Below are positions 1,536 to 57,748 of a stretch of DNA of 64,000 nucleotides, piece after piece. The translations under genes and the position numbers were made by a program. Source of the stretch: Odiellus spinosus (Eukaryota; Arthropoda; Arachnida; Opiliones; Phalangiidae). How positions within the stretch are numbered: the first letter of the stretch is position 1; every line of letters begins with the position of its first letter. The notes below the pieces were generated by a model that saw only the letters and a program-made list of their open reading frames with translations, had not been told where the DNA came from and ran no database searches. Where the stretch lies: the NCBI GenBank assembly GCA_963920705.1, contig OY987230.1, forward strand, positions 9,123,185 through 9,187,184, given 5' to 3'.

Positions 1536-1606
1536 ATGTTTCAAGAAATCCAATCAAATCGATTAGATAAAAGACGGTGTGCAGTTCACACGACTAAATT
1601 GCAACG

Positions 1607-1767: not shown

Positions 1768-2029
1768 TTGCAACGTTTTGAAACAGTTTGAATCGATTCC
1801 AGGGCCTAGTATGAAAGCAAATAAGATATTATCAAGATAATAATTACATAACTTGACAATATAAAGAATATAAAACATTAATAATTTTAAAAAACCTAAA
1901 ATAAATGCGCATGCATTCGAAAAAATGGTGTCAGTAGCGCTTTAAAAGCTGGATATTTAGAAAAGAAAATTATCGAGAATGCAGTATGAAACTCCCTGGC
2001 TTCGTAAATATCGTCGTTTCTCGAAATAT

Positions 2030-2368: not shown

Positions 2369-2705
2369 GAAATATATATATTTTTTTCTCTCCAATTTTA
2401 CTTCCTCCTTCTCCTCTCTTTCAAAGATAAGATTAACGATGCGGTAAAACATTTCCATTAAAAACAAAATGAAACTATAACGTTGAATTAAAGGACGGGG
2501 GTAGACCGAGTCGAGGAGGGTGTGAGGGAAAAAATATCCTTAAAATAATAACAACGTAAAAACACCGCGCATTCGATGCGGAGGTGACGAGCGGGTTAAA
2601 ACAATATTTGTTTAAACATAATATTTTGGCCAAGTTCTGTCCTATGGGACAGGACAGAAGGAGGCAACAGATTCTGGAAGACGACTTCCACTTCCTTATT
2701 ATCAA

Positions 2706-2865: not shown

Positions 2866-3230
2866 TTGAAGAGAGATTGCAACCTAATAACAAGTGATTT
2901 TTTTAATCGATTCATTATCGTTTAAATAGGCCTAATCCACCAATAAAAAGTTTACAAATCAAATATGAAACTATAAATAAATTTAAAACTTACCCAAAAA
3001 ATAGGCTTAGCGGGATTTATGGATTTCCTAAATTGTCTCCTTGTAAGTTCTAGCAACCAATGAGCAAAGGCCCATCGTTCACGCGAGATCTCCACGAGAC
3101 TTACAATCGCATTCGATTGGTCGCTAGACCTTATACGCGAGGAAATCAGGATCTCCATGAATCCCGCTAAGCCTATTTTCCGGGTAAGTTTTAAATTTAT
3201 TTCTAGTAGTTAGGTTGTATTCTCCATTGA
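2866..3230. mobile_element. TTAA-family foldback MITE, right arm internally deleted
   Basis: The left end is degraded (TTGAAGAGAGATTGCAACC); the right end is TTAGGTTGTATTCTCCATTGAA. The central part is a long palindrome around CAAAGGCCCATCGTTCACG, the second of two core types seen in this family (also at 55902 and 57390). The right arm jumps from TTTCTAG straight to TAGTTAGGTTG, so about 75 bp of the usual arm is missing. No protein is encoded. Confidence 0.75.
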
Positions 3231-6069: not shown

Positions 6070-6526
6070 AGGCAAGAATGCCCGAAAATGAGCCCCATCT
6101 TAAAATGGCCGTAACGTTTCTCTATGACCTTCTAGGGATAAACCGATTGCACCATTAGAAAGTTGAAGTTCCTTAGATTATTTTAAGACAATAAAATTAT
6201 GTTTCGCCACTCGAAAAAGATCTTTCGCCACTCATAGAAATGGAGCCAAATCCCGAAAAAGACGGCTATCTTAAAATGACCGTAACCTTTATCTATGACC
6301 TCCTAGCCATAAACCAATTGCCCCATTAGAAAGTTGACGTTCTTTAGATTAATTTTAGACAATCAAAATCTGTTTCGCCACTCGAAAAAGATGTTTCGTC
6401 ACTGATAGAAATGGAGCAAAAATCAAGAAAATGAACCCTATCTTAAAATGACCGAAACTTTTCTCTATGATCTCCTAGGCATAAAGCGATTGCACCAATC
6501 GAAAGTAGATATTCCTTATATTATAA
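6070..6526 (+). repeat. Diverged satellite patch, about 2.7 monomers of 171-172 bp
   Basis: Three tandem units are registered by TAAAATG at 6101, 6272 and 6444, giving periods of 171 and 172. Each unit carries the order seen in the big array at 26298-40690: CTTAAAATGRCCG, then TCTMYGATCTCCTAGG, AAACCGATTGCACC, ATTAGAAAG, and later CGCCACTSATAGAA. The units differ from each other and from the array at many positions, so this is an old, unhomogenised relative. No open reading frame spans it. Confidence 0.9.
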
Positions 6527-8736: not shown

Positions 8737-9097
8737 TTAAAGAGAGAGTGAAACCTAACAAGTGTTTTTTTTATCGATTCCTTATTTTTTAAATAGGCCT
8801 AATCCACTAGTGAAAATATTTAGAAACAAATATTAAACTAGAAATAAATTTAAATCTTACCCGCAAAATAGGCTTAGCTGGATTCATGAAGATCCTGCAT
8901 TCCCCATATAACTAACATCGATCAATTCTATTGGTCGCTAGTCCTTATATGAAGAATGCAGAATCTCCAGCTAAGCCTATTTTCCGGGTAAGTTTTAAAT
9001 TTATTTCTAGTTAAATATTTCTTTATTTTTTTTACTAGTGGATTAGGCCTTATTTAAAATAAAACATGACTTGTTGTTAGGTGCATTCTACCTTTAA
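8737..9097. mobile_element. TTAA-family foldback MITE, complete, about 361 bp
   Basis: TTAA is present at both ends. The left arm reads AAAGAGAGAGTGAAACC and the right arm reads TTAGGTGCATTCTACC before TTTAA. The arms are inverted over about 160 bp and include CCGGGTAAGT / ACTTACCCGC and ATTTATTTCTAG. The centre holds the ATTGGTCGCTAG palindrome type. It encodes no protein. The TTAA could be a piggyBac-type target duplication or simply part of the inverted repeat. Confidence 0.8.
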
Positions 9098-12695: not shown

Positions 12696-13063
12696 TTAAA
12701 GGAGAATGCAGCCTAACAATTGGTTTTTTATCAATTCCTTATCGTTTAAATAGACCTAGTTCAACAGTGAAAATAAAATTACAAACAAATATTAAACTAG
12801 AAATAAATTTAAAACTTACCCGAAAAATAGGCTTAGCTTTATTCATGGAGATATCCTGAACTCTCCCTATAAGGACTAGCGACCAATGGCATTGATCTAT
12901 GGACCTTATATGGGAAATTCATGATCTAAATGAATCCAGCTAAGCCTATTTTGATAGTAAGTTTAAAATTTATTTATAGTTCAATATTTGTTTGTGGATT
13001 AGGCCTATTTAAACGATAAGTAATCGATAAAAAATTACTTGTTAGGTTGCATTCTCCCTTTAA
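12696..13063. mobile_element. TTAA-family foldback MITE, complete, about 368 bp
   Basis: The best-preserved copy: left TTAAAGGAGAATGCAGCC, right GGTTGCATTCTCCCTTTAA, with arms inverted over more than 150 bp. The core reads GGACTAGCGACCAATGGC. The inner arm carries ACTTACCCG on one side and GATAGTAAGTTT on the other. No protein is encoded. It serves as a reference for the family. Confidence 0.85.
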
Positions 13064-25427: not shown

Positions 25428-25501
25428 GTCCGCGTAGCCTAATGGATTAAGGCGTCTGACTTCGGATCAGAAGATTGCAGGTTCGAGTCCTGTCGCGGAC
25501 G
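25428..25501 (+). tRNA. tRNA-Arg(TCG): tRNA-Arg, anticodon TCG
   Basis: A cytosolic arginine tRNA that would decode CGA (and wobble CGG). The acceptor stem GTCCGCG/CGCGGAC is perfect over 7 bp. The D arm GCC...GGC has a normal loop. The anticodon stem TCTGA/TCAGA closes the loop CTTCGGA with anticodon TCG at 25462-25464. The T stem GCAGG/CCTGT closes the loop TTCGAGT. There is no intron and no encoded CCA; the discriminator base is G at 25501. The internal promoters are intact: A box TAGCCTAATGG at 25435-25445 and B box GGTTCGAGTCC at 25480-25490. The gene lies about 0.8 kb from the edge of the large satellite array. All stems pair, so it looks functional rather than a SINE-type relic. Confidence 0.97.
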
Positions 25502-25624: not shown

Positions 25625-25778
25625 CGAGGGGTCCGACACTCTTGAATTCGCTGTACACCTGAGTTCAGAATTGACAGTGCATTTAGTTCGAACTCTTATG
25701 AACTCTTGAGTTCAGCTTTGATAGTTGAAAGAGTTCAAACATTTTGTACAACGAAGTTCGCGAGTGTCTGCCCCCTCG
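25625..25778 (-). mobile_element. hAT-like MITE, 154 bp, family CGAGGGG
   Basis: Left end CGAGGGGTCCGACACTC and right end GAGTGTCTGCCCCCTCG, flanked by a perfect 8-bp direct repeat CTAAATAC (25617-25624 and 25779-25786). It is inverted relative to the copy at 1607-1767. It lies between the tRNA gene and the tandem-repeat block. It has no coding capacity. Confidence 0.85.
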
Positions 25779-25789
25779 CTAAATACATC

Positions 25790-26297
25790 TTTTTAATGGG
25801 GCGTAGAATTTGCATCACGCTGATTTTGTAGCTTAACGGTTCTCTTTAAGAATTTAGCAACGATTCAATCCTATCCTTTAACGATAAGTCGCCAGCTCAG
25901 TTTTAGTTCGAAATGAAGACGTAAATTTTCTGGCAAGACACGCTATGGCTTCCCTTTAAATAATTTTTTTGGCCCGTTTTGATGGTGCTTCGAATTTGCA
26001 CCACGCTGATTTTGTAGCTTAGACGGTTCTCTTTAAGAATTTAGCCACGATTCAATCCTAGCCTTTAACGATAAGTCGCCAGCTCAGTTTTAGTTTCAAA
26101 TGAAGAAATTCATTTTTTGGCAATGCACACTAGGCTCTTTATTTACTCTTTAAATACATGTTTTCACTCTTTTTGATGGGGCTTAGAATTTGTAGCTTAG
26201 ACGCTTCTCTTTAAGAATTTAGCCACGATAAGTCGCCAGCTCAGTTTTCTTCACTCTTTTTGATGGGGCTTAGAATATGCACCATGCCTTATTTGTT
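25790..26297 (+). repeat. Tandem repeat of about 186 bp, 2.5 copies, distinct from the main satellite
   Basis: The unit contains CACGCTGATTTTGTAGCTTA (at 25816 and 26002, period 186), then GGTTCTCTTTAAGAATTTAG, AACGATAAGTCGCCAGCTC and AGTTTTAGTT. The third copy is truncated and rearranged (26175-26290), repeating TTTTGATGGGGCTTAGAAT. It directly abuts the 172-bp array. It shows no resemblance to the 172-bp monomer that I can see. Confidence 0.85.
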
Positions 26298-27966
26298 GTG
26301 ACCGGAACTTTTCTCCACGATCTCCTAGGCATAAACCGATTGCACCATTAGAAAGAAGACATTCCCTAGATAAATTTAAAATAATAAAATTAACATGAGC
26401 CACTCGTTAAAGAATATTCCGCCACTGATAGAACAATCTAAAACCCAAAACCACTATCTTAAAATAGCCGTAACCTTTCTCCACGATCTAATAGGCACAA
26501 AACGATTGCACCATTAGAAAGAAGACATTCCCTAAATTAATTTAAAATAATAAAATTAACATGAGTGACTCGTTAAAGAATATTCCGCCATTGATAGAAA
26601 ACAAGGAAAAACCCAAAAGTGACCCCTATCTTAAAATGGCCGTAACTTTTCTCCACGATCTCCTAGGCACAAACCGATTGCACCGTTAGAAAGAAGACAT
26701 TCCCTAAATTAATTTAAAATAATAAAATTAACATGAGTGACTCGTTAAAGAATATTCCGCCATTGATAGAAAACAAGGAAAAACCCAAAAGTGACCCCTA
26801 TCTTAAAATGGCCGTAACTTTCTCCACGATCACCTAGGCACAAACCGATTGCACCATTAGAAAGAAGACATTCCCTAAATAAATTTAAAATAATAAAATT
26901 AACATGAGCCACTCGTTAAAGAATATTCCGCCATTGATAGAAAACAAGGAAAAACCCAAAAGTGACCCCTATCTTAAAATGGCCGTAACTTTTCTCCACG
27001 ATCTCCTAGGCACAAACCGATTGCACCGTTAGAAAGAAGACATTCCCTAAATTAATTTAAAATAATAAAATTAACATGAGTGACTCGTTAAAGAATATTC
27101 CGCCATTGATAGAAAACAAGGAAAAACCCAAAAGTGACCCCTATCTTAAAATGGCCGTAACTTTTCTCCACGATCACCTACGCACAAACCGATTGCACCA
27201 TTAGAAAGAAGACATTCCCTAAATAAATTTAAAATAATAAAATTAACATGAGCCACTCGTTAAAGAATATTCCGCCATTGATAGAAAACAAGGAAAAACC
27301 CAAAAGTGACCCCTATCTTAAAATGGCCGTAACTTTTCTCCACGATCTCCTAGGCACAAACCGATTGCACCGTTAGAAAGAAGACATTCCCTAAATTAAT
27401 TTAAAATAATAAAATTAACATGAGTGACTCGTTAAAGAATATTCCGCCATTGATAGAAAACAAGCAAAAACCCAAAAGTGACCCCTATCTTAAAATGGCC
27501 GCAACTTTTCTCCACGATCACCTAGGCACAAACCGATTGCACCATTAGAAAGAAGACATTCCCTTAATAAAATTAAAATAATAAAATTAACATGAGCCAC
27601 TCGTTAAAGAATTTTCCGCCATTGATAGAAAACAAGCAAAAACCCAAAAGTGACCCCCTATCTTAAAATGGCCGTAACTTTTCTCCACGATCACCTAGGC
27701 ACAAACCGATTGCACCATTAGAAAGAAGACATTCTCTAAATAAATTTAAAATAATAAAATTAACATGAGCCACTCGTTAAAGAAGTTTCCGCCATTGATA
27801 GAAAACAAGCAAAAACCCAAAAGTGACCCCTATCTTAAAATGGCCGTAACTTTTCTCCACGATCTCCTAGGCACAAACCGATTGCACCATTAGAAAGAAG
27901 ATATTCCCTAAATAAATTTAAAATAATAAAATTAACATGAGCCACTCGTTAAAGAATATTCCGCCA

Positions 27967-30352
27967 CTGATAGAACAATCTAAAACCCAAAACCATTATC
28001 TTAAAATAGCCCTAACCTTTCTCCACGATCTAATAGGCACAAAACGATTGCACCATTAGAAAGAAGACATTCCCTAAATTAATTTAAAATAATAAAATTA
28101 ACATGAGCCACTCGTTAAAGAATATTCCGCCATTGATAGAAAACAAGCAAAAACCTGAAAGTGACCCCTATCTTAAAATGGCCGTAACTTTTCTCCACGA
28201 TCACCTAGGCACAAACCGATTTCACCATTAGAAAGAAGACATTCTCTAAATAAATTTAAAATAATAAAATTAACATGAGCCACTCGTTAAAGAAGTTTCC
28301 GCCATTGATAGAAAACAAGCAAAAACCCAAAAGTGACCCCTATCTTAAAATGGCCGTAACTTTTCTCCACGATCACCTAGGCACAAACCGATTGCACCAT
28401 TAGAAAGAAGATATTCCCTAAATAAATTTAAAATAATAAAATTAACATGAGCCACTCGTTAAAGAATATTCCGCCACTGATAGAACAATCTAAAACCCAA
28501 AACCATTATCTTAAAATAGCCCTAACCTTTCTCCACGATCTAATAGGCACAAAACGATTGCACCATTAGAAAGAAGACATTCCCTAAATTAATTTAAAAT
28601 AATAAAATTAACATGAGCCACTCGTTAAAGAATATTCCGCCATTGATAGAAAACAAGCAAAAACCCAAAAGTGACCCCTATCTTAAAATGGCCGCAACTT
28701 TTCTCCACGATCACCTAGGCACAAACCGATTGCACCATTAGAAAGAAGACATTCCCTTAATAAAATTAAAATAATAAAATTAACATGAGCCACTCGTTAA
28801 AGAATTTTCCGCCATTGATAGAAAACAAGCAAAAACCCAAAAGTGACCCCCTATCTTAAAATGGCCGTAACTTTTCTCCACGATCACCTAGGCACAAACC
28901 GATTGCGCCATTAGAAAGAAGACATTCTCTAAATAAATTTAAAATAATAAAATTAACATGAGCCACTCGTTAAAGAAGTTTCCGCCATTGATAGAAAACA
29001 AGCAAAAACCCAAAAGTGACCCCTATCTTAAAATGGCCGTAACTTTTCTCCACGATCTCCTAGGCACAAACCGATTGCACCATTAGAAAGAAGATATTCC
29101 CTAAATAAATTTAAAATAATAAAATTAACATGAGCCACTCGTTAAAGAATATTCCGCCACTGATAGAACAATCTAAAACCCAAAACCATTATCTTAAAAT
29201 AGCCCTAACCTTTCTCCACGATCTAATAGGCACAAAACGATTGCACCATTAGAAAGAAGACATTCCCTAAATTAATTTAAAATAATAAAATTAACATGAG
29301 CCACTCGTTAAAGAATATTCCGCCATTGATAGAAAACAAGCAAAAACCTGAAAGTGACCCCTATCTTAAAATGGCCGTAACTTTTCTCCACGATCACCTA
29401 GGCACAAACCGATTGCACCATTAGAAAGAAGACATTCTCTAAATAAATTTAAAATAATAAAATTAACATGAGCCACTCGTTAAAGAAGTTTCCGCCATTG
29501 ATAGAAAACAAGCAAAAACCCAAAAGTGACCCCTATCTTAAAATGGCCGTAACTTTTCTCCACGATCACCTAGGCACAAACCGATTGCACCATTAGAAAG
29601 AAGATATTCCCTAAATAAATTTAAAATAATAAAATTAACATGAGCCACTCGTTAAAGAATATTCCGCCACTGATAGAACAATCTAAAACCCAAAACCATT
29701 ATCTTAAAATAGCCCTAACCTTTCTCCACGATCTAATAGGCACAAAACGATTGCACCATTAGAAAGAAGACATTCCCTAAATTAATTTAAAATAATAAAA
29801 TTAACATGAGCCACTCGTTAAAGAATATTCCGCCATTGATAGAAAACAAGCAAAAACCCAAAAGTGACCCCTATCTTAAAATGGCCGCAACTTTTCTCCA
29901 CGATCACCTAGGCACAAACCGATTGCACCATTAGAAAGAAGACATTCCCTTAATAAAATTAAAATAATAAAATTAACATGAGCCACTCGTTAAAGAATTT
30001 TCCGCCATTGATAGAAAACAAGCAAAAACCCAAAAGTGACCCCCTATCTTAAAATGGCCGTAACTTTTCTCCACGATCACCTAGGTACAAACCGATTGCA
30101 CCATTAGAAAGAAGACATTCTCTAAATAAATTTAAAATAATAAAATTAACATGAGCCACTCGTTAAAGAAGTTTCCGCCATTGATAGAAAACAAGCAAAA
30201 ACCCAAAAGTGACCCCTATCTTAAAATGGCCGTAACTTTTCTCCACGATCTCCTAGGCACAAACCGATTGCACCATTAGAAAGAAGATATTCCCTAAATA
30301 AATTTAAAATAATAAAATTAACATGAGCCACTCGTTAAAGAATATTCCGCCA
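27967..30352 (+). repeat. Higher-order block A: two 7-monomer repeats of 1193 bp
   Basis: The diagnostic monomer is spaced 510, 683, 510 and 683 bp apart. The 510+683 pattern occurs twice, giving two consecutive 1193-bp higher-order units (27967-29159 and 29160-30352). Private variants repeat at the same places, for example AAGTTTCCGCC, GACATTCTCTAAA and CTTAATAAAATTAAA. Confidence 0.85.
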
Positions 30353-32640
30353 CTGATAGAACAATCTAAAACCCAAAACCATTATCTTAAAATAGCCCTA
30401 ACCTTTCTCCACGATCTAATAGGCACAAAACGATTGCACCATTAGAAAGAAGACATTCCCTAAATTAATTTAAAATAATAAAATTAACATGAGCCACTCG
30501 TTAAAGAATATTCCGCCATTGATAGAAAACAAGCAAAAACCTGAAAGTGACCCCTATCTTAAAATGGCCGTACATTTCTCCACGATCACCTAGGCACAAA
30601 CCGATTGCACCATTAGAAAGAAGACATTCTCTAAATAAATTTAAAATAATAAAATTAACATGAGCCACTCGTTAAAGAAGTTTCCGCCATTGATAGAAAA
30701 CAAGCAAAAACCCAAAAGTGACCCCTATCTTAAAATGGCCGTAACTTTTCTCCACGATCACCTAGGCACAAACCGATTGCACCATTAGAAAGAAGACATT
30801 CCCTAAATAAAATTAAAATAATAAAATTAACATGAGCCACTCGTTAAAGAATTTTCCGCCATTGATAGAAAACAAGCAAAAACCCAAAAGTGACCCCTAT
30901 CTTAAAATGGCCGTAACTTTTCTCCACGATCACCTAGGCACAAACCGATTGCACCATTAGAAAGAAGACATTCCCTAAATTAATTTAAAATAATAAAATT
31001 AACATGAGTGACTCGTTAAAGAATATTCCGCCATTGATAGAAAACAAGGAAAAACCCAAAAGTGACCCCCATCTTAAAATGGCCGTAACTTTTCTCCACG
31101 ATCACCTAGGCACAAACCGATTGCACCATTAGAAAGAAGACATTCCCTAAATAAAATTAAAATAATACAATTAACATGAGCCACTCGTTAAAGAATATTC
31201 CGCCATTGATAGAAAACAAGGAAAAACCCAAAAGTGACCCCCATCTTAAAATGGCCGTAACTTTTCTCCACGATCACCTAGGCACAAACCGATTGCACCA
31301 TTAGAAAGAAGACATTCCCTAAATAAATTTAAAATAATAAAATTAACATGAGCCACTCGTTAAAGAATTTTCCGCCATTGATAGAAAACAAGCAAAAACC
31401 CAAAAGTGACCCCTATCTTAAAATGGCCGTAACTTTTCTCCATGATCACCTAGGCACAAACCGATTACACCATTAGAAAGAAGACACTCCCTAAATTAAT
31501 TTAAAATAATAAAATTAACATGAGTGACTCGTTAAAGAATATTCCGCCATTGATAGAAAACAAGGAAAAACCCAAAAGTGACCCCTATCTTAAAATGGCC
31601 GTAACTTTTCTCCACGATCACCTAGGCACAAACCAATTGCACCATTAGAAAGAAGACATTCCCTAAATAAATTTAAAATAATAAAATTAACATGAGCCAC
31701 TCGTTAAAGAATTTTCCGCCATTGATAGAAAACAAGCAAAAACCCAAAAGTGACCCCTATCTTAAAATGGCCGTAACTTTTCTCCACGATCACCTAGGCA
31801 CAAACCGATTGCACCATTAGAAAGAAGACATTCTCTAAATAAATTTAAAATAATAAAATTAACATGAGCCACTCGTTAAAGAAGTTTCCGCCATTGATAG
31901 AAAACAAGCAAAAACCCAAAAGTGACCCCTATCTTAAAATGGCCGTAACTTTTCTCCACGATCACCTAGGCACAAACCGATTGCACCATTAGAAAGAAGA
32001 CATTCCCTAAATAAATTTAAAATAATAAAATTAACATGAGCCACTCGTTAAAGAATATTCCGCCACTGATAGAACAATCTAAAACCCAAAACCATTATCT
32101 GAAAATAGCCGTAACCTTTCTCCACGATCTAATAGGCACAAAACGATTGCACCATTAGAAAGAAGACATTCCCTAAATTAATTTAAAATAATAAAATTAA
32201 CATGAGTGACTCGTTAAAGAATATTCCGCCATTGATAGAAAACAAGGGAAAACCCAAAAGTGACCCCTATCTTAAAATGGCCGTAACTTTTCTCCACGAT
32301 CACCTAGGCACAAACCGATTGCACCATTAGAAAGAAGACATTCCCTAAATAAAATTAAAATAATAAAATTAACATGAGTGACTCGTTAAAGAATATTCCG
32401 CCATTGATAGAAAACAAGGAAAAACCCAAAAGTGACCCCTATCTTAAAATGGCCGTAACTTTTCTCCACGATCACCTAGGCACAAACCGATTGCACCATT
32501 AGAAAGAAGACATTCCCTAAATTAATTTAAAATAATAAAATTAACATGAGCCACTCGTTAAAGAATATTCCGCCATTGATAGAAAACAAGCAAAAACCTG
32601 AAAGTGACCCCTATCTTAAAATGGCCGTAACTTTTCTCCA

Positions 32641-35040
32641 CGATCTCCTAGGCACAAACCGATTGCACCGTTAGAAAGAAGACATTCCCTAAATTAATTT
32701 AAAATAATAAAATTAACATGAGTGACTCGTTAAAGAATATTCCGACACTGATAGAAAACAAGCAAAAACCCAAAAGTGACCCCCTATCTTAAAATGGCCG
32801 TAACTTTTCTCCACGATCACCTAGGCACAAACCGATTGCACCATTAGAAAGAAGACATTCCCTAGATAAATTTAAAATAATAAAATTAACATGAGCCACT
32901 CGTTAAAGAATATTCCGCCACTGATAGAACAATCTAAAACCCAAAACCACTATCTTAAAATAGCCGTAACCTTTCTCCACGATCTAATAGGCACAAAACG
33001 ATTGCACCATTAGAAAGAAGACATTCCCTAAATTAATTTAAAATAATAAAATTAACATGAGCCACTCGTTAAAGAATATTCCGCCATTGATAGAAAACAA
33101 GCAAAAACCTGAAAGTGACCCCTATCTTAAAATGGCCGTAACTTTTCTCCACGATCTCCTAGGCACAAACCGATTGCACCGTTAGAAAGAAGACATTCCC
33201 TAAATTAATTTAAAATAATAAAATTAACATGAGTGACTCGTTAAAGAATATTCCGACACTGATAGAAAACAAGCAAAAACCCAAAAGTGACCCCTATCTT
33301 AAAATGGCCGTAACTTTTCTCCACGATCACCTAGGCACAAACCGATTGCACCATTAGAAAGAAGACATTCCCTAAATAAATTTAAAATAATAAAATTAAC
33401 ATGAGCCACTGGTTAAAGAATTTTCCGCCACTGATAGAAAACAAGCAAAAACCCGAAAGTGACCCCTATCTTAAAATGGCCGTAACTTTTCTCCACGATC
33501 ACCTAGGCACAAACCGATTGCACCATTAGAAAGAAGACATTCTCTAAATAAATTTAAAATAATAAAATTAACATGAGCCACTGGTTAAAGAATTTTCCGC
33601 CAATGATAGAAAACAAGGAAAAACCCAAAAGTGACCCCTATCTTAAAATGGCCGTAACGTTTCTCCACGATCTCCTAGGCACAAACCTATTGCACCGTTA
33701 GAAAGAAGACATTCCCTAAATTAATTTAAAATAATAAAATTAACATGAGCCACTCGTTAAAGAATATTCCACCACTGATAGAAAACAAGGAAAAACCCAA
33801 AAGTGACCCCCTATCTTAAAATGGCCGTAACTTTTCTCCACGATCTCCTAGGCACAAACCGATTGCACCGTTAGAAAGAAGACATTCCCTAAATTAATTT
33901 AAAATAATAAAATTAACATGAGTGACTCGTTAAAGAATATTCCGACACTGATAGAAAACAAGCAAAAACCCAAAAGTGACCCCCTATCTTAAAATGGCCG
34001 TAACTTTTCTCCACGATCACCTAGGCACAAACCGATTGCACCATTAGAAAGAAGACATTCCCTAGATAAATTTAAAATAATAAAATTAACATGAGCCACT
34101 CGTTAAAGAATATTCCGCCACTGATAGAACAATCTAAAACCCAAAACCACTATCTTAAAATAGCCGTAACCTTTCTCCACGATCTAATAGGCACAAAACG
34201 ATTGCACCATTAGAAAGAAGACATTCCCTAAATTAATTTAAAATAATAAAATTAACATGAGCCACTCGTTAAAGAATATTCCGCCATTGATAGAAAACAA
34301 GCAAAAACCTGAAAGTGACCCCTATCTTAAAATGGCCGTAACTTTTCTCCACGATCTCCTAGGCACAAACCGATTGCACCGTTAGAAAGAAGACATTCCC
34401 TAAATTAATTTAAAATAATAAAATTAACATGAGTGACTCGTTAAAGAATATTCCGACACTGATAGAAAACAAGCAAAAACCCAAAAGTGACCCCTATCTT
34501 AAAATGGCCGTAACTTTTCTCCACGATCACCTAGGCACAAACCGATTGCACCATTAGAAAGAAGACATTCCCTAAATAAATTTAAAATAATAAAATTAAC
34601 ATGAGCCACTGGTTAAAGAATTTTCCGCCACTGATAGAAAACAAGCAAAAACCCGAAAGTGACCCCTATCTTAAAATGGCCGTAACTTTTCTCCACGATC
34701 ACCTAGGCACAAACCGATTGCACCATTAGAAAGAAGACATTCTCTAAATAAATTTAAAATAATAAAATTAACATGAGCCACTGGTTAAAGAATTTTCCGC
34801 CAATGATAGAAAACAAGGAAAAACCCAAAAGTGACCCCTATCTTAAAATGGCCGTAACGTTTCTCCACGATCTCCTAGGCACAAACCTATTGCACCGTTA
34901 GAAAGAAGACATTCCCTAAATTAATTTAAAATAATAAAATTAACATGAGCCACTCGTTAAAGAATATTCCACCACTGATAGAAAACAAGGAAAAACCCAA
35001 AAGTGACCCCTATCTTAAAATGGCCGTAACTTTTCTCCAC
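32641..35040 (+). repeat. Higher-order block B: near-identical 1200-bp direct repeat
   Basis: 32641-33840 and 33841-35040 read the same line by line, apart from a single C in a CCCC run near 33810. Shared private variants are TATTCCGACACTG, CACTGGTTAAAGAATTTT, AACCTATTGCACCG and AATATTCCACCACTG. Such similarity inside a satellite implies a recent unequal exchange. Confidence 0.9.
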
Positions 35041-35490
35041 GATCTCCTAGGCACAAACCGATTGCGCCGTTAGAAAGAAGACATTCCCTAAATTAATTTA
35101 AAATAATAAAATTAACATGAGCCACTCGTTAAAGAATATTCCGCCACTGATAGAAAACAAGCAAAAACCCAAAAGTGACCCCTATCTTAAAATGGCCGTA
35201 ACTTTTCTCCACGATCACCTAGGCACAAACCGATTACACCATTAGAAAGAAGACATTCCCTAAATTAATTTAAAATAATAAAATTAACATGAGTGACTCG
35301 TTAAAGAATATTCCGCCATTGATAGAAAACAAGGAAAAACCCAAAAGTGACCCCTATCTTAAAATGGCCGTAACTTTTCTCCACGATCACCTAGGCACAA
35401 ACCGATTGCACCATTAGAAAGAAGACATTCCCTAGATAAATTTAAAATAATAAAATTAACATGAGCCACTCGTTAAAGAATATTCCGCCA

Positions 35491-38400
35491 CTGATAGAAC
35501 AATCTAAAACCCAAAACCACTATCTTAAAATAGCCGTAACCTTTCTCCACGATCTAATAGGCACAAAACGATTGCACCATTAGAAAGAAGACATTCCCTA
35601 AATTAATTTAAAATAATAAAATTAACATGAGCCACTCGTTAAAGAATATTCCGCCATTGATAGAAAACAAGCAAAAACCTGAAAGTGACCCCTATCTTAA
35701 AATGGCCGTAACTTTTCTCCACGATCTCCTAGGCACAAACCGATTGCACCGTTAGAAAGAAGACATTCCCTAAATTAATTTAAAATAATAAAATTAACAT
35801 GAGTGACTCGTTAAAGAATATTCCGACACTGATAGAAAACAAGCAAAAACCCAAAAGTGACCCCTATCTTAAAATGGCCGTAACTTTTCTCCACGATCAC
35901 CTAGGCACAAACCGATTGCACCATTAGAAAGAAGACATTCCCTAAATAAATTTAAAATAATAAAATTAACATGAGCCACTGGTTAAAGAATTTTCCGCCA
36001 CTGATAGAAAACAAGCAAAAACCCGAAAGTGACCCCTATCTTAAAATGGCCGTAACTTTTCTCCACGATCACCTAGGCACAAACCGATTGCACCATTAGA
36101 AAGAAGACCTTCTCTAAATAAATTTAAAATAATAAAATTAACATGAGCCACTGGTTAAAGAATTTTCCGCCAATGATAGAAAACAAGGAAAAACCCAAAA
36201 GTGACCCCTATCTTAAAATGGCCGTAACGTTTCTCCACGATCTCCTAGGCACAAACCTATTGCACCGTTAGAAAGAAGACATTCCCTAAATTAATTTAAA
36301 ATAATAAAATTAACATGAGCCACTCGTTAAAGAATATTCCACCACTGATAGAAAACAAGGAAAAACCCAAAAGTGACCCCTATCTTAAAATGGCCGTAAC
36401 TTTTCTCCACGATCTCCTAGGCACAAACCGATTGCGCCGTTAGAAAGAAGACATTCCCTAAATTAATTTAAAATAATAAAATTAACATGAGCCACTCGTT
36501 AAAGAATATTCCGCCACTGATAGAAAACAAGCAAAAACCCAAAAGTGACCCCTATCTTAAAATGGCCGTAACTTTTCTCCACGATCACCTAGGCACAAAC
36601 CGATTACACCATTAGAAAGAAGACATTCCCTAAATTAATTTAAAATAATAAAATTAACATGAGTGACTCGTTAAAGAATATTCCGCCATTGATAGAAAAC
36701 AAGGAAAAACCCAAAAGTGACCTCTATCTTAAAATGGTCGTAACTTTTCTCCACGATCACCTAGGCACAAACCGATTGCACCATTAGAAAGAAGACATTC
36801 CCTAGATAAATTTAAAATAATAAAATTAACATGAGCCACTCGTTAAAGAATATTCCGCCACTGATAGAACAATCTAAAACCCAAAACCACTATCTTAAAA
36901 TAGCCGTAACCTTTCTCCACGATCTAATAGGCACAAAACGATTGCACCATTAGAAAGAAGACATTCCCTAAATTAATTTAAAATAATAAAATTAACATGA
37001 GCCACTCGTTAAAGAATATTCCGCCATTGATAGAAAACAAGCAAAAACCTGAAAGTGACCCCTATCTTAAAATGGCCGTAACTTTTCTCCACGATCTCCT
37101 AGGCACAAACCCATTGCACCGTTAGAAAGAAGACATTCCCTAAATTAATTTAAAATAATAAAATTAACATGAGTGACTCGTTAAAGAATATTCCGACACT
37201 GATAGAAAACAAGCAAAAACCCAAAAGTGACCCCTATCTTAAAATGGCCGTAACTTTTCTCCACGATCACCTAGGCACAAACCGATTGCACCATTAGAAA
37301 GAAGACATTCCCTAAATAAATTTAAAATAATAAAATTAACATGAGCCACTGGTTAAAGAATTTTCCGCCACTGATAGAAAACAAGCAAAAACCCGAAAGT
37401 GACCCCTATCTTAAAATGGCCGTAACTTTTCTCCACGATCACCTAGGCACAAACCGATTGCACCATTAGAAAGAAGACATTCTCTAAATAAATTTAAAAT
37501 AATAAAATTAACATGAGCCACTCGTTAAAGAATTTTCCGCCACTGATAGAAACAAGCAAAAACCCAAAAGTGACCCCTATCTTAAAATGGCCGTAACTTT
37601 TCTCCACGATCTCCTAGGCGCAAACCTATTGCACCATTAGAAAGACATTCCCTAAATAAATTTAAAATAATAAAATTATCATGAGCCACTCGTTAAAGAA
37701 TATTCCGCCACTGATAGAAAACAAGCAAAAACCCAAAAGTGACCCCTATCTGAAAATGGCCGTAACGTTTCTCCACGATCTCCTAGGCACAAACCTATTG
37801 CACCGTTAGAAAGAAGACATTCCCTAAATTAATTTAAAATAATAAAATTAACATGAGCCACTCGTTAAAGAATATTCCACCACTGATAGAAAACAAGGAA
37901 AAACCCAAAAGTGACCCCTATCTTAAAATGGCCGTAACTTTTCTCCACGATCTCCTAGGCACAAACCGATTGCGCCGTTAGAAAGAAGACATTCCCTAAA
38001 TTAATTTAAAATAATAAAATTAACATGAGCCACTCGTTAAAGAATATTCCGCCACTGATAGAAAACAAGCAAAAACCCAAAAGTGACCCCTATCTTAAAA
38101 TGGCCGTAACTTTTCTCCACGATCACCTAGGCACAAACCGATTACACCATTAGAAAGAAGACATTCCCTAAATTAATTTAAAATAATAAAATTAACATGA
38201 GTGACTCGTTAAAGAATATTCCGCCATTGATAGAAAACAAGGAAAAACCCAAAAGTGACCTCTATCTTAAAATGGTCGTAACTTTTCTCCACGATCACCT
38301 AGGCACAAACCGATTGCACCATTAGAAAGAAGACATTCCCTAGATAAATTTAAAATAATAAAATTAACATGAGCCACTCGTTAAAGAATATTCCGCCACT

Positions 38401-39591
38401 GATAGAACAATCTAAAACCCAAAACCACTATCTTAAAATAGCCGTAACCTTTCTCCACGATCTAATAGGCACAAAACGATTGCACCATTAGAAAGAAGAC
38501 ATTCCCTAAATTAATTTAAAATAATAAAATTAACATGAGCCACTCGTTAAAGAATATTCCGCCATTGATAGAAAACAAGCAAAAACCTGAAAGTGACCCC
38601 TATCTTAAAATGGCCGTAACTTTTCTCCACGATCTCCTAGGCACAAACCCATTGCACCGTTAGAAAGAAGACATTCCCTAAATTAATTTAAAATAATAAA
38701 ATTAACATGAGTGACTCGTTAAAGAATATTCCGACACTGATAGAAAACAAGCAAAAACCCAAAAGTGACCCCTATCTTAAAATGGCCGTAACTTTTCTCC
38801 ACGATCACCTAGGCACAAACCGATTGCACCATTAGAAAGAAGACATTCCCTAAATAAATTTAAAATAATAAAATTAACATGAGCCACTGGTTAAAGAATT
38901 TTCCGCCACTGATAGAAAACAAGCAAAAACCCGAAAGTGACCCCTATCTTAAAATGGCCGTAACTTTTCTCCACGATCACCTAGGCACAAACCGATTGCA
39001 CCATTAGAAAGAAGACATTCTCTAAATAAATTTAAAATAATAAAATTAACATGAGCCACTCGTTAAAGAATTTTCCGCCACTGATAGAAACAAGCAAAAA
39101 CCCAAAAGTGACCCCTATCTTAAAATGGCCGTAACTTTTCTCCACGATCTCCTAGGCGCAAACCTATTGCACCATTAGAAAGACATTCCCTAAATAAATT
39201 TAAAATAATAAAATTATCATGAGCCACTCGTTAAAGAATATTCCGCCACTGATAGAAAACAAGCAAAAACCCAAAAGTGACCCCTATCTGAAAATGGCCG
39301 TAACTTTCTCCACGATCTCCTAGGCACAAACCTATTGCACCATTAGAAAGAAGACATTCCCTAAATTAATTTAAAATAATAAAATTAACATGAGTGACTC
39401 GTTAAAGAATATTCCGCCATTGATAGAAAACAAGGAAAAACCCAAAAGTGACCCCTATCTTAAAATGGCCGTAACTTTTCTCCACGATCACCTAGGCACA
39501 AACCGATTGCACCATTAGAAAGAAGACATTCCCTAGATAAATTTAAAATAATAAAATTAACATGAGCCACTCGTTAAAGAATATTCCGCCA
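35491..39591 (+). repeat. Higher-order block C: 8- and 9-monomer repeats (1370, 1538 bp)
   Basis: The diagnostic monomer is spaced 1370 bp (35491 to 36861), 1538 bp (36861 to 38399) and 1193 bp (38399 to 39592). The 1538-bp unit carries an additional monomer marked by a 3-bp loss (CATTAGAAAGACATTCC, near 37637), repeated near 39176 and 40368. GACCTCTATCTTAAAATGGTCG-type variants occur near 36720 and 38260. Confidence 0.85.
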
Positions 39592-40690
39592 CTGATAGAA
39601 CAATCTAAAACCCAAAACCACTATCTTAAAATAGCCGTAACCTTTCTCCACGATCTAATAGGCACAAAACGATTGCACCATTAGAAAGAAGACATTCCCT
39701 AAATTAATTTAAAATAATAAAATTAACATGAGCCACTCGTTAAAGAATATTCCGCCATTGATAGAAAACAAGCAAAAACCTGAAAGTGACCCCTATCTTA
39801 AAATGGCCGTAACTTTTCTCCACGATCTCCTAGGCACAAACCGATTGCACCGTTAGAAAGAAGACATTCCCTAAATTAATTTAAAATAATAAAATTAACA
39901 TGAGTGACTCGTTAAAGAATATTCCGACACTGATAGAAAACAAGCAAAAACCCAAAAGTGACCCCTATCTTAAAATGGCCGTAACTTTTCTCCACGATCA
40001 CCTAGGCACAAACCGATTGCACCATTAGAAAGAAGACATTCCCTAAATAAATTTAAAATAATAAAATTAACATGAGCCACTGGTTAAAGAATTTTCCGCC
40101 ACTGATAGAAAACAAGCAAAAACCCGAAAGTGACCCCTATCTTAAAATGGCCGTAACTTTTCTCCACGATCACCTAGGCACAAACCGATTGCACCATTAG
40201 AAAGAAGACATTCTCTAAATAAATTTAAAATAATAAAATTAACATGAGCCACTCGTTAAAGAATTTTCCGCCACTGATAGAAACAAGCAAAAACCCAAAA
40301 GTGACCCCTATCTTAAAATGGCCGTAACTTTTCTCCACGATCTCCTAGGCGCAAACCTATTGCACCATTAGAAAGACATTCCCTAAATAAATTTAAAATA
40401 ATAAAATTATCATGAGCCACTCGTTAAAGAATATTCCGCCACTGATAGAAAACAAGCAAAAACCCAAAAGTGACCCCTATCTGAAAATGGCCGTAACTTT
40501 CTCCACGATCTCCTAGGCACAAACCTATTGCACCATTAGAAAGAAGACATTCCCTAAATTAATTTAAAATAATAAAATTAACATGAGCCACTCGTTAAAG
40601 AATATTCCGATTTCCGCCACTGATAGAAAACAAGCAAAAAACCCAAAAGTGACCCCTATCTTAACATGGTCGTAAGTTTTCTCCACGATA

Positions 40691-42949: not shown

Positions 42950-44160
42950 TTAAAGGGAGAATGAGACCATAACAACAAAGCTACGTTCACACTTGCGACT
43001 TGGAAACTGATTCGAATGTTCAAATCGACTTTCCAAGATGTACGTATTTAACCCCAAAATTTTGTAAGTTGACCTTTCCAAAACGGTTCAAAGTCTCTAG
43101 TGTGAACGCAGTTCAATTGATTTTTCTATCATTTCCTTACCCTTTAAATATAGGCCTACCTAATACTTGTTTTTATGAAATAAATCGTAGTTTTGACCAT
43201 ATTGTTGAAATTTTATTATTGAATCACGTGACTCAAGCTTAATTTGATTACCCCATGTACCATATAATTTACATGATTACACATGCCGTAAGAGAGAATT
43301 TTAGAGTGAAACGAAAAAAAACCTCCCATTATTGTTAGCTACGCTAGAAACTTTACGAGCTGTGTCAAAGGGCCCGTGTTGTTTTCGATTTGGTGGTACA
43401 TCAGCACAAATTCGATTTTGGCGCCATAAAGTATTGATAGACTTATGGCGCCCCTCAATTCGGTGCTATTCTAAGATTTAATGTACCAACCGTTCCTTCG
43501 CCACTGAGCTGTGACGTAGAAAGCAATATTTTCTCGCTAAACCACACCTCTTTCATAAAACCAGAAGCCGATGAAACCCTCCTTTGAAGTCTATTACTCC
43601 CGGGTCTTGTCTACCCCTCTCTGTATTGGTTAGTTTCAAAAAGTGCGATTCGTACGCCTCCAAACGGTAGATATTTTCGGAGCGGGAGCTCGTCGAGCGA
43701 ATATCTCTAGCAGCCTTGGAGTTCGTCAAAAAAACGTCGTCGTTTGTGGAGAGAGAGAGAATTTCCAGTTTTCCTTAGACAGGGGGTATGAAGTAGGACC
43801 CCTCCGATCTCGTAAAATTGTGAATTTTACCCATACAGAGAGGAGCGCTATATCGAACCTTAGAGTAGTAGACTTCAAAGGAGGGTTTCATCGGCTTCTG
43901 ATAAAACCAAGTATTAACTAGTAAAAGAAGCTATATATCGATTTTGAACTATTCTGGGGATTATAACTTTTTTCTCAACTAAGAGTAGGAAAAAATGAAT
44001 ATAAAAAGGGCGAGCTTAATATCTCTACCGGTGACCTCAAAATTCAACAATTTGACCTTTAAATAACGGTTAGAAACGGTTTCAATGTCTCTAGTGTGAA
44101 CACTATTAATTTTCCTCGCGTGAACGTAGCTTTGCTGTGTAGCTTCATTCTCTCTTTTAT
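42950..44160. mobile_element. Composite TTAA-type foldback, about 1.2 kb, with nested insert
   Basis: The outer left end reads TTAAAGGGAGAATGAGACC, then ACAACAAAGCTACGTTCAC. The outer right end is its complement: GTGAACGTAGCTTTG, then TTCATTCTCTCTTTTAT. Next inside lie TTCACACT...GAGAC foldback motifs on each side (42984-43110 and about 44020-44102). Between them is the complete 339-bp P-like MITE (43562-43900) with its own 7-bp duplication. The order of insertion is therefore readable: outer element first, 339-bp element later. Confidence 0.6.
43562..43900 (-). mobile_element. P-like MITE, 339 bp, second copy of family CAGAAGCC
   Basis: Same 339-bp length as 2030-2368, in inverted orientation. 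Ends CAGAAGCCGATGAAACCC and complement; perfect 7-bp flanks ATAAAAC (43555-43561 and 43901-43907). Internally conserved blocks include AAATATCTACCGTTWGGAGG read on the minus strand. The frame open at 43643-43921 is inside the element and is not conserved as a protein in the other copy. Confidence 0.88.
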
Positions 44161-45260: not shown

Positions 45261-45530
45261 TATTAGGAAATAATTTTTGGCTCTCAAATAAGTCCGACTA
45301 GGCTCCGACTACCATTATTAGGAAATAGCTTTTGGCCCTCAAATAAGTCCGACTTGCATGTTGCCGACTTGCATGTTGCCGACTTGCATGTTGCCGACTT
45401 GCATGTTGCCGACTTGCATGTTGCCGACTTGCATGTTGCCGACTTGCATGTTGCCGACTTGCATGTTGCCGATTTGCATGTTGCCGACTTGAGAAAAACT
45501 ACCTTTATTAGGAATTAACTTTTGGCCGAG
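45261..45530 (+). repeat. Direct repeats of a TTATTAGGAAATA block around a minisatellite
   Basis: TTATTAGGAAATAAYTTTTGGC followed by CTCAAATAAGTCCGACT occurs at about 45261 and 45316, and again as TTTATTAGGAATTAACTTTTGG at about 45502. A weaker copy lies at about 46930. The 15-bp minisatellite appears to have grown out of the ...GTCCGACTT end of the second copy. Confidence 0.75.
45349..45483 (+). repeat. Minisatellite, nine perfect or near-perfect 15-bp units
   Basis: Nine copies of CCGACTTGCATGTTG; only the last full unit has one C-to-T change. Because the unit is a multiple of three, every frame reads as a pentapeptide repeat, but no start codon lies in frame upstream. Confidence 0.97.
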
Positions 45531-48118: not shown

Positions 48119-48640
48119 ATGATTATACGTGATTAAATTCAGTACACCACGATTAAAAGGTGATTAAATTCAGTGCACCACGATTAAAAGGTGATTAAAT
48201 TCATTGCATTACCTATAAATGCTGATTAAATTCATTGCATCATCATTAAATGATGATTAAATTCATTGCATCACCAATAAATGATGATTAAATTCATTGC
48301 ATCACCAATAAATGATGATTAAATTCATTGCATCACCAATAAATGATGATTAAACTCATTGCATCACCAATAAATGATGATTAAATTCATTGCATCACCA
48401 ATAAATGATTAAATTCATTGCATCACCAATAAATGATTAAATTCATTGCATCACCAATAAATGATTAAATTCATTGCATCACCAATAAATGATTAAATTC
48501 ATTGCATCACCAATAAATGATTAAATTCATTGCATCACCAATAAATGATTAAATTCATTGCATCACCAATAAATGATTAAATTCATTGCATCACCAATAA
48601 ATGATTAAATTCATTGCATCACCAATAAATGATTGAATTT
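48119..48640 (+). repeat. Minisatellite, 31-bp units passing into 28-bp units
   Basis: About eight 31-bp units (GATGATTAAATTCATTGC plus ATCACCAATAAAT, with more diverged first units GATTAAAAGGTGATTAAATT) are followed from about 48397 by eight or nine 28-bp units that lack one GAT. The 28-bp units are almost identical to one another. The array ends at GATTGAATTTGAAC. It has no spacers and is not a CRISPR array. Confidence 0.95.
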
Positions 48641-53825: not shown

Positions 53826-55335
53826 GGGTGAAATCTCAATATGACCCAAATTAGCTTTGTTACATTAAAATGTCTCCCAAATCAGCTTTGTCCTATCGAA
53901 ATATCTCCCAAATAAGCTTTGTCCCATCGAAATATCTCCCAAATCAGCTTTGTCCCATCGAAATATCTCCCAAATCAGCTTTATCCCATCGAAATATCTC
54001 CCAAATCAGCTTTGTCACATCAATAGGTCTCCCAAATCAGCTTTGTCACATCAATAGGTCTCCCAAATCAGCTTTGTCACATCAATAGGTCTCCCAAATC
54101 AGCTTTGTCACATCAATAGGTCTCCCAAATCAGCTTTGTCACATCAATAGGTCTCCCAAATCAGCTTTGTCACATCAATAGGTCTCCCAAATCAGCTTTG
54201 TCACATCAATAGGTCTCCCAAATCAGCTTTGTCACATCAATAGGTCTCCCAAATCAGCTTTGTCACATCAATAGGTCTCCCAAATCAGCTTTGTCACATC
54301 AATAGGTCTCCCAAATCAGCTTTGTCACATCAATAGGTCTCCCAAATCAGCTTTGTCACATCAATAGGTCTCCCAAATCAGCTTTGTCACATCAATAGGT
54401 CTCCCAAATCAGCTTTGTCACATCAATAGGTCTCCCAAATCAGCTTTGTCACATCAATAGGTCTCCCAAATCAGCTTTGTCACATCAATAGGTCTCCCAA
54501 ATCAGCTTTGTCACATCAATAGGTCTCCCAAATCAGCTTTGTCACATCAATAGGTCTCCCAAATCAGCTTTGTCACATCAATAGGTCTCCCAAATCAGCT
54601 TTGTCACATCAAAAGGTCTCCCAAATCAGCTTTGTCACATCAAAAGGTCTCCCAAATGAACTTTGTCCCATCGAAATAGCTCCCAAATGAGCTTTGTCCC
54701 ATCGAAATAGCTCCCAAATCAGCTTTGTCCCATCGAAATAGCTCCCAAATCAGCTTTATCACATCAATAAGTGCTCCCAAATCAGCTTTATCACATCAAT
54801 AAGTGCTCCCAAATCAGCTTTATCACATCAATAAGTGCTCCCAAATCAGCTTTATCACATCAATAAGTGCTCCCAAATCAGCTTTATCACATCAATAAGT
54901 GCTCCCAAATCAGCTTTATCACATCAATAAGTGCTCCCAAATCAGCTTTATCACATCAATAAGTGCTCCCAAATCAGCTTTATCACATCAATAAGTGCTC
55001 CCAAATCAGCTTTATCACATCAATAAGTGCTCCCAAATCAGCTTTATCACATCAATAAGTGCTCCCAAATCAGCTTTATCACATCAATAAGTGCTCCCAA
55101 ATCAGCTTTATCACATCAATAAGTGCTCCCAAATCAGCTTTATCACATCAATAAGTGCTCCCAAATCAGCTTTATCACATCAATAAGTGCTCCCAAATCA
55201 GCTTTATCACATCAATAAGTGCTCCCAAATCAGCTTTATCACATCAATAAGTGCTCCCAAATCAGCTTTGTCACATCAATAGGTCCCTCAAATCAGCTTT
55301 GTCACATCAAAAGGTCTCCCAAATCAGCTTTGTTT
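53826..55335 (+). repeat. Minisatellite of about 1.5 kb with 31- and 32-bp blocks
   Basis: The core is CTCCCAAATCAGCTTTGTC. Five blocks are visible. At about 53868-54000 are 31-bp units with CCCATCGAAATAT. At about 54001-54650 are some twenty 31-bp units with ACATCAATAGGT, nearly all identical. At about 54650-54750 are units with CCCATCGAAATAGC. At about 54750-55262 are sixteen 32-bp units with TTATCACATCAATAAGTG, again nearly identical. A short tail reverts to the second type. The open frame at 53870-54088 exists because three 31-bp units form a 93-bp cycle, and is not a gene. Units are contiguous, with no spacers. Confidence 0.97.
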
Positions 55336-55901: not shown

Positions 55902-56304
55902 TTAAAGGGAGAATGCAACCTAACATTTAATTTTTTTATCGATTGATTGTTTAAATAGGCCTAATCCACCAGTGAAAAAAATTACGAATAAATATTAAAC
56001 TAGAAATAAATTTAAACCTTACCCGGAAAATAGCCTTAGCGGGATTCATGGAGAACCTGATTTCCTCGCGTATAAGGTCTAGCGACAAATCTCGCGTGAA
56101 CAACGGGCCTTTGCTCATTGGTCGCTAGACCTTACACGGAGGCAATTCTCCATGAATCCCACTAAGCCTATTTTCCGGGTAAATTTCAAATTTATTTCTA
56201 GTTTAATATTTGTTTTCTAAACTTTTTATTGGTGGATTAGGCATATTTAAACAATAAGGAATTGATGAAAAATCACTTGTTATTAGCTTGAATTCTACCT
56301 TTAA
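55902..56304. mobile_element. TTAA-family foldback MITE, complete, about 403 bp
   Basis: Left TTAAAGGGAGAATGCAACC and right GCTTGAATTCTACCTTTAA. The arms carry TTACCCGGAAAATAGCC against TTTTCCGGGTAAATTTC, then ATTTATTTCTAG. The core is of the CAACGGGCCTTTGCTC type with TCCTCGCGTATAAGGTC. It has no coding capacity. Confidence 0.85.
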
Positions 56305-57389: not shown

Positions 57390-57748
57390 GCCTAATCCGC
57401 TAGTGAAAAATTTACAAAACAAATATTAAACCAGAAATAAATTTAAAACTTACCCGGAAAATATTCTTAGAGGGATTCATGGAGATCCTGATTTCCTCCC
57501 GAACGCGATTGTAAGTCTCGTGGAGATCTCGCGCGAACGACGGGCCTTTGCTCATTGGTCGCTAGACCTTACACGGAGACAATTCAGGATCTCCACGAAT
57601 CCCGCTAAGCCTATTTTCCGGGTAAATTTTAAATTTATTCTTAATTTAACTTTTGTTTTGTAAACTTTTTATTGGTTTATTAGGTATTTTTAAACGATAA
57701 GGAATCGATAAAAAAATCAGTTGTTATTAGGTTGCATTCTCCCTTTAA
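57390..57748. mobile_element. TTAA-family foldback MITE, left end truncated
   Basis: Starts abruptly at CCTAATCCGCTAGTG, lacking the first 60-70 bases of the family. The right end is intact: TTAGGTTGCATTCTCCC then TTTAA. The core matches those at 2866 and 55902 (GATTGTAAGTCTCGTGG, AACGACGGGCCTTTGC), which defines a subfamily. Confidence 0.8.

What the first reader, a model, noticed from the sequence alone, without database searches (positions are those of the whole stretch)
26298..40690. 171-172 bp satellite with true higher-order repeats of 7, 8 and 9 monomers
A diagnostic variant monomer recurs at intervals of 1542, 510, 683, 510, 683, 1713, 855, 1200, 1370, 1370, 1538 and 1193 bp, all close to whole multiples of 171. 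This is the architecture of homogenised centromeric satellites such as primate alpha satellite, with nearly the same monomer length, but the monomer sequence is unlike any I recognise and has no CENP-B box. A centromeric or pericentromeric role is inference.
Basis: partly seen in the sequence, partly recalled or inferred. Interest (0 to 1): 0.72.

Follow-up and report, generated by a model that had tools for sequence, protein, structure and literature searches.

The report
Dispersed insect-type satellite with block duplications
A short run of repeated DNA in an insect-like genome shows the block-within-block pattern known from human centromeres, but the same repeat lies at dozens of scattered places in that genome, so it looks like an ordinary dispersed satellite caught copying blocks of itself rather than a centromere.

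Summary
26299-40689 is a sharply bounded array of 84 head-to-tail monomers (~172 bp); all 12 stated intervals are exact. Intervals alone prove nothing, since any variant in a tandem array recurs at multiples of the unit. The order of variants does: 48 positions lie in repeated 4-monomer words against a mean of 0.02 in 2,000 shuffles. Four perfect tandem block duplications (9, 8, 7, 7 monomers) account for 31 of 84 monomers; tandem copies are 98.75-100% identical, monomers inside a unit differ by about 6%. These are young, shallow, variable-length HORs.

In the window's 443-Mb genome (TTAGG-rich, so arthropod-like) a 20-mer of the monomer has 6,220 hits, and capped listings already give 68 places on 15 of 16 chromosome-size contigs, up to 8 on one. 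One site per chromosome is not met; a 23-bp satellite has 69,499 exact hits. No CENP-B box. Homogenisation is partly array-specific (17 of 23 arrays). Best reading: dispersed satellite, locally reshaped by in-register unequal exchange; a centromere role is unsupported but not excluded.

The parts
26299..40689 (+). whole satellite array, 84 head-to-tail monomers of 166-179 bp (55 of 172 bp, 13 of 166 bp)
26302..27498 (+). left part, irregular monomers (labels A B C D C E C), no repeated multi-monomer block
27499..30567 (+). domain 1: FG, then the 7-mer HIGHJFG at 27844-29036 and 29037-30229 (3 mismatches in 1193 bp), then HI at 30230-30567 (identical to the HI of the copy before)
30568..32624 (+). 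middle part, irregular monomers K L M N L O L G P B Q R
32625..35023 (+). domain 2: 7-mer STISUVW twice (1203 bp exact at lag 1200)
33998..36737 (+). domain 2: 8-mer TISUVWXY twice (2 mismatches in 1370 bp)
36222..39297 (+). domain 2: 9-mer WXYTISUZa twice (identical; 1552 bp exact at lag 1538)
38276..40669 (+). domain 2: 7-mer TISUZab / TISUZac (7 mismatches and 8 gap columns)
6081..6523 (+). second, older mini-array of the same family, about 2.6 monomers, about 75-78% identical to the main array (83% over the last 70 bp), 83% among themselves
25791..26290 (+). degenerate tandem duplication (two copies by BLAST, a third partial one by eye), unlike the satellite, that abuts the left edge of the array

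Best explanation
This is one array of a dispersed, nucleosome-length satellite family of an arthropod-like genome. The array grows and homogenises locally: unequal exchange (or replication slippage) between monomers in register duplicates blocks of 7-9 neighbouring monomers. At least four such events, at different breakpoints and of different lengths, some overlapping others, give the 7-, 8- and 9-mer 'higher-order repeats'. Shown: the block duplications, their register, their recency relative to monomer divergence, the dispersal, three subfamilies with partly array-specific homogenisation. Inferred: the recombination mechanism, and the absence of a dedicated function; no selective function is needed to explain the pattern.
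For: Collapsing perfect tandem label duplications removes four blocks (9, 8, 7, 7) and takes 84 monomers to 53. All monomers remain whole, 166-179 bp, so every duplication is a whole number of monomers. Tandem unit copies are 98.75-100% identical, monomers within a unit about 94%. 13 of 13 copies of the 166-bp variant are followed by the same monomer group (these are not independent). Simulated random block duplications of 1-10 monomers give repeated words of median length 8-9 after 2-20 events, 2 without events. The C3 array shows comparable blocks, 9-mer (1536 bp) and 7-mer (1201 bp). A 20-mer of the monomer has 6,220 genome hits; at least 68 places. In 17 of 23 arrays mean identity is higher within the array than to the nearest other array. 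Flanks of arrays are mostly unrelated: 31 of 861 flank pairs share 60 bp or more.
Against: The mechanism itself is not observed. The simple simulation falls short of the real array: median longest word 8-9 against 12, and 12-36 positions in repeated 4-words against 48. In 6 of 23 arrays identity is not higher within than to another array, and only 10 of 23 loci with two or more rows come out as one clade in the tree. Lag signals in the C1 and C2 arrays are weak, except lag 5 in C1 21.50 Mb. Arrays are regionally clustered, for example C1 17.7-23.1 Mb and C8 18.1-20.1 Mb, which might mean a positional role. Two identical 1.5-kb blocks could in principle be an assembly artefact; reads were not available.
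Confidence: 0.78

Rival explanations
1. Centromeric or pericentromeric satellite: the larger arrays mark the centromere of each chromosome, and this one marks that of contig C6.
For: Monomer of nucleosome length with block duplications; larger arrays inside chromosomes: C1 17.730-17.749 (18.5 kb), C2 from 10.029 with spot samples positive to 10.086 (57 kb if continuous), C3 10.909-10.924 and positive spots to 10.941, C11 13.197-13.205 (9 kb), C17 7.668-7.689 Mb (21 kb); regional clustering on several contigs.
Against: Several separate arrays per chromosome, for example C2 at 2.72, 2.82, 6.57 and 10.03 Mb, C11 at 5.22-5.27, 13.20 and 21.7-22.3 Mb; none seen on C18 in the capped listings; a 23-bp satellite has 69,499 exact hits, and 97 of the 100 listed places lie on C2 at 27.35-27.68 Mb, far from this family's C2 arrays; 0 of 20 samples of short contigs hold this family (3 of them all N, 5 partly N), while 23-bp, 383-bp and 5S-like arrays do; no CENP-B box, no hairpin excess in one monomer folded (z +0.88), no perfect stem of 6 bp or more with a loop up to 20 in the consensus.
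Confidence: 0.13
2. The arrays are internal tandem repeats of a transposable element (as in some Helitrons and bivalve elements, recalled) and spread by transposition.
For: Dispersal to many sites on both strands; a few arrays share neighbouring repeats (left flanks of C14 16.48 and C5 8.86, 86% over 390 bp); small old copies exist (6081-6523).
Against: Only 31 of 861 flank pairs share 60 bp or more, and array ends lie in different phases of the monomer, judged by eye; no transposase or reverse transcriptase among hits of 193 open frames of the window scanned against Pfam.
Confidence: 0.06
3. Assembly artefact: the block repeats are misassembled copies of one stretch.
For: The 9-mer copies are identical over 1,538 bp.
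Against: Other tandem copies differ by 2-7 mismatches (the STISUVW pair has one gap only), the blocks have different lengths and breakpoints, and the C3 array shows blocks of the same kind.
Confidence: 0.03

Closest known systems
Primate alpha satellite HOR arrays (PMC8122249, PMC11157248; passages seen)
   Same: Monomer about 171 bp, head-to-tail, blocks of n monomers more alike than the monomers inside a block; units that repeat a monomer type inside (H and G occur twice in HIGHJFG), like the 'cascading' HORs of human chromosome 3.
   Different: Here about 6% divergence between monomers of a unit against 20-40%; two to six unit copies against thousands of monomers in period in the human array; 14.4-kb array; many arrays per chromosome; no CENP-B box. 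Sequence similarity to alpha satellite was not tested.
Higher-order repeats of beetle satellites, for example Tribolium castaneum (passages in PMC7598501 and PMC5615363; the original paper PMC5737470 is not held)
   Same: HORs in an insect satellite; PMC5615363 says that regular, usually dimeric HORs have been found in several beetles.
Dispersed short-array satellites of the Pacific oyster type (pattern b in PMC10048060; passages seen)
   Same: Many arrays along the chromosomes, next to other tandem repeats.
   Different: Here some arrays reach 9-21 kb or more, cluster regionally and carry multi-monomer blocks; a shared mobile-element carrier was not found.

Membership tests
Higher-order repeat (HOR) satellite | copies of a multi-monomer block are more alike than the monomers within the block | tested here: met
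   98.75-100% between tandem copies of equal type, 93.4-94.1% between monomers of a block; the 8-mer and 9-mer differ by 6 mismatches and 168 gap columns
Higher-order repeat (HOR) satellite | a canonical unit repeated many times in tandem | tested here: inconclusive
   each exact unit occurs about twice; counted by the TISU core there are six successive copies of 7 to 9 monomers
Primate alpha satellite | monomers of one HOR copy diverge by 20-40% | tested here: not met
   5.9-6.6% mean in three units against the figure in PMC11157248
Primate alpha satellite | CENP-B box in a subset of monomers | tested here: not met
   0 matches with up to 2 substitutions, both strands of 26299-40690; minimal motif recalled, full box in a passage of PMC8122249
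Primate alpha satellite | sequence homology to alpha satellite | not tested
   no alpha satellite sequence was used
Centromeric satellite | enriched for CENH3/CENP-A | not testable with these tools
   needs ChIP or CUT&RUN
Centromeric satellite | one major site per (monocentric) chromosome | tested here: not met
   68 or more places on 15 of 16 chromosome-size contigs, up to 8 on one; the listings were capped, so these are lower bounds; whether the species is monocentric is unknown
Centromeric satellite | dominant satellite in the short, repeat-rich contigs of the assembly | tested here: not met
   0 of 20 samples, 3 of them all N and 5 partly N
Dispersed satellite DNA | many arrays along several chromosomes | tested here: met
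Dispersed satellite DNA | association with mobile elements | tested here: inconclusive
   31 of 861 flank pairs share 60 bp or more; MITE-like elements lie in the window

The most novel reading that the evidence does not exclude
The family is split into subfamilies by chromosome compartment: one 172-bp subfamily near chromosome ends, another 172-bp and a 178-bp subfamily mostly inside chromosomes, each homogenised within its compartment. If the interior arrays were many small CENH3-bearing or heterochromatin-seeding units per chromosome, this would be a satellite that builds HORs in short, multi-site chromosome domains without one large centromere block.
Probability: 0.1. Interest if true: 0.7.

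Novelty: new member of a known kind. Interest (0 to 1): 0.3.

Why it matters
It is a compact, fully contained and readable case of HOR birth: four block duplications and their breakpoints can be read from 14.4 kb, in a satellite that is not at one site per chromosome. It warns that HOR organisation by itself is weak evidence of centromere function. The apparent split of the two 172-bp groups between chromosome ends and interiors (27 of 28 against 1 of 9 arrays within 4.4 Mb of an end) would be a testable case of compartment-limited concerted evolution.

Tried and rejected
Coding content of the monomer: stops in all six frames of the consensus. Hammerhead or other RNA: in 26299-28200 one hit at E 1.7, 18 bits against a gathering score of 120.3. 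Pfam scan of 93 open frames of 64 aa or more and of 100 of the 153 open frames of 50-63 aa; frames inside the array and the 31-bp minisatellite were left out beforehand. Hits, one member each: Pentapeptide 8.3e-4, PMG 9.5e-4, Decapeptide 6.4e-3, Keratin_B2_2 6.4e-3; Keratin_B2_2 6.8e-5, RB_B 6.4e-4, PHTF1-2_N 6.3e-3. I take them as low-complexity (probably frames of the 15-bp minisatellite at 45349) or chance-level; not followed up. Monomer pattern in viral contigs and genome contigs, and 1.7 kb of the array in plasmids: nothing. Monomer words in the paper library: no paper. A shared flank around arrays: not found in general; target-site duplications were looked for by eye only at the window array. 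Conserved block in the monomer: identity in 20-base windows between consensus and old array varies from 0.55 to 0.95 without one clear block. Period-10 AA/TT signal: not interpreted. The CENP-C family search and a map of the 383-bp satellite were asked for repeatedly and never answered. Organism: not identified; arthropod-like only by TTAGG (10,296 hits of a 25-mer, overlapping registers counted, against 0 for a TTAGGG 24-mer) and CpG o/e 1.04.

Weak points of my own counts: the 89% cut between the two 172-bp groups was chosen after seeing the list; arrays on one chromosome are not independent (9 and 5 chromosomes); array places were read off the listings by hand into; 'chromosome-size' means the 16 contigs of 9.9 Mb or more among the 38 whose length was shown, which hold 364 of 443 Mb; loci L010 and L037 overlap by 2 kb and are one C3 array, double-counted and corrected.
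Full report
WHAT WAS CHECKED. TRF finds one array, 26302-40689, period 172 bp, 84.1 copies, 93% matches; BLAST with its consensus delimits 84 monomers (55 of 172 bp, 13 of 166 bp, 16 of 169-179 bp other than 172) and a second mini-array at 6081-6523 with about 2.6 monomers, about 75-78% identical. Satellite matches start at 26299 and stop at 40689, with none directly on either side. The flanks hold a tRNA-Arg(TCG) gene at 25428-25501, dispersed repeats and, among other short tandem repeats, three sizeable minisatellites.

ORDER OF VARIANTS. Clustering monomers at two differences (average linkage) gives 29 classes in the order ABCDCECFGHIGHJFGHIGHJFGHIKLMNLOLGPBQRSTISUVWSTISUVWXYTISUVWXYTISUZaWXYTISUZabTISUZac. 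Against 2,000 shuffles, repeated 4-words cover 48 positions (shuffled mean 0.02, maximum 2), repeated 5-words 43 (maximum 0), longest repeated word 12 (maximum 4). Mean distance at lag 7 is 8.2 standard deviations below 300 shuffles. Whole-number multiples of the monomer are automatic in a tandem array, so it is this order, not the interval list, that proves block repeats.

ANATOMY OF THE BLOCKS. Domain 1 (27499-30567) holds FG, the 7-mer HIGHJFG twice, then HI. Domain 2 (32625-40669) holds STISUVW twice, TISUVWXY twice, WXYTISUZa twice and TISUZab/TISUZac, overlapping one another; the core TISU occurs six times. Identities between tandem copies: 99.75, 99.92, 99.85, 100 and 98.75%; the 8-mer and the 9-mer differ by 6 mismatches and 168 gap columns, V against Za. 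Mean divergence between monomers of one unit: 6.64, 5.88, 5.93%. Collapsing perfect tandem label duplications removes four blocks (9, 8, 7, 7 monomers) and leaves 53 monomers. All 13 monomers of 166 bp are followed by one monomer group, B/I/J, which has 13 members, so a two-monomer association is probably older than either domain; HIG and TIS are 96.9% identical.

MECHANISM. Every block is a whole number of monomers and no partial monomer lies inside the array, which points to exchange between homologous positions of different monomers (unequal sister-chromatid or homologous exchange, or slippage in register). This is inferred. A simple simulation of random block duplications gives median longest words of 8-9 (real 12) and 12-36 positions in repeated 4-words (real 48) after 2-20 events, against 2 and 0 without events. 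So HOR structure arises without selection, though the real array has more large-block duplication than that model. The monomer shows no sign of a special structure: fold z +0.88 for one monomer, no perfect stem of 6 bp or more with a loop of up to 20 in the consensus, no CENP-B box with up to two substitutions.

THE FAMILY IN ITS GENOME. The window is C6:9123185-9187184 of an unnamed 443-Mb assembly with 286 contigs. C1-C8 and C11-C18 are 9.9-35.4 Mb long; I call these chromosome-size. A 20-mer of the monomer with up to one mismatch has 6,220 hits, its reversed control 0; at about 175 bp each that is about 1.1 Mb or 0.25% of the genome, without the more diverged monomers. The listings, all capped, give at least 68 distinct places (merged at 50 kb), 38 of the 172-bp type with the window and 31 of the 178-bp type, on 15 of 16 chromosome-size contigs; C14 and C8 have 8 each, C13 and C15 one, C18 none seen. 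Larger 178-bp arrays: C1 17.730-17.749 Mb (18.5 kb between first and last exact hit), C2 from 10.029 Mb with positive stretches and spot samples to 10.086 and none at 10.110, C3 from 10.909 through 10.924 and positive spots to 10.941, none at 10.960, C11 13.197-13.205 and C17 7.668-7.689 Mb. The C3 array holds 9-mer (1536 bp) and 7-mer (1201 bp) blocks (lag 9 z 4.2, lag 7 z 3.4); C2 and C1 17.73 Mb show weak lag signals (z up to 2.4), C1 21.50 Mb lag 5 (z 4.1).

SUBFAMILIES. In 23 arrays sampled (400 monomers after removing 10 double-counted ones) mean identity within the array exceeds that to the nearest other array in 17 and does not in 6 (correcting). A tree of 67 monomers supports a 172-bp group around the window (17 rows, 100/96) and a 178/179-bp group (14 rows, 97/84); 10 of 23 loci with two or more rows form one clade each. 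Of the 37 arrays, 27 of 28 that are under 89% identical to the window probe lie within 4.4 Mb of a chromosome end, against 1 of 9 of the closer ones; uniform placement predicts 39%. The cut was chosen after the fact and arrays on one chromosome are not independent, so this is a lead.

CENTROMERE OR NOT. For: monomer length, blocks, some larger interior arrays, regional clustering. Against: several arrays per chromosome; 0 of 20 samples from short contigs, presumed unplaced, hold the family (3 all N, 5 partly N), while 23-bp (3 samples), 383-bp (2) and 268-bp 5S-like (1; label by eye) arrays do; the 23-bp satellite has 69,499 exact hits, and 97 of the first 100 places listed lie on C2 at 27.35-27.68 Mb, the other 3 on C1. 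By exact-match bases that is about 1.6 Mb against about 1.1 Mb for this family, both lower bounds. No chromatin data exist here, so the role is unproven either way.

COMPARISON. In alpha satellite, monomers of a HOR copy differ by 20-40% and copies usually by under 5% (passage of PMC11157248; PMC8122249 gives about 70% and up to 97-100% identity). Here the contrast is about 6% against 0-1.25%: the same kind of organisation at a far shallower stage. HORs are known in beetles and other insects (passages of PMC5615363 and PMC7598501), and dispersed arrays in euchromatin from several animals (passages of PMC10048060). Hence: new member of a known kind. The exact family was not found in print by the only search made for its letters (three sequence words, no paper), which says little.

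Noticed in passing
window 2027-2369 and 43561-43903: Two inverted copies (95% identical) of a MITE-like element with terminal inverted repeats and 7-bp flanking duplications read by eye.
   Followed up: partly
window 1606-1767 and 25625-25779: hAT-like MITE (83% identical copies), terminal repeats CGAGGGG..., 8-bp flanking duplications read by eye; a similar terminus lies just right of the old mini-array, by eye.
   Followed up: partly
window 1298-1534, 2866-3207, 8737-9058, 12696-13063, 55902-56304, 57390-57748: Dispersed repeat family with inverted parts; some copies begin and end in TTAA, by eye.
   Followed up: no
window 53845-55333, 48130-48639, 45349-45491: Three minisatellites of 31 bp (47.5 copies), 28 bp (17.4) and 15 bp (9.5).
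   Followed up: no
L041, L047, L051 and C2:27.35-27.68 Mb: A 23-bp satellite with 69,499 exact hits genome-wide that fills 3 of 20 sampled short contigs; a possible centromere or heterochromatin candidate.
   Followed up: partly
L040 and L054: A 383-bp satellite that fills 2 of 20 sampled short contigs, with multi-unit periods of its own (1,602 bp at 99% matches in L040).
   Followed up: no
contig C1, 0.19-31.1 Mb: Short interstitial TTAGG runs at many places along C1 (first 100 places listed).
   Followed up: no
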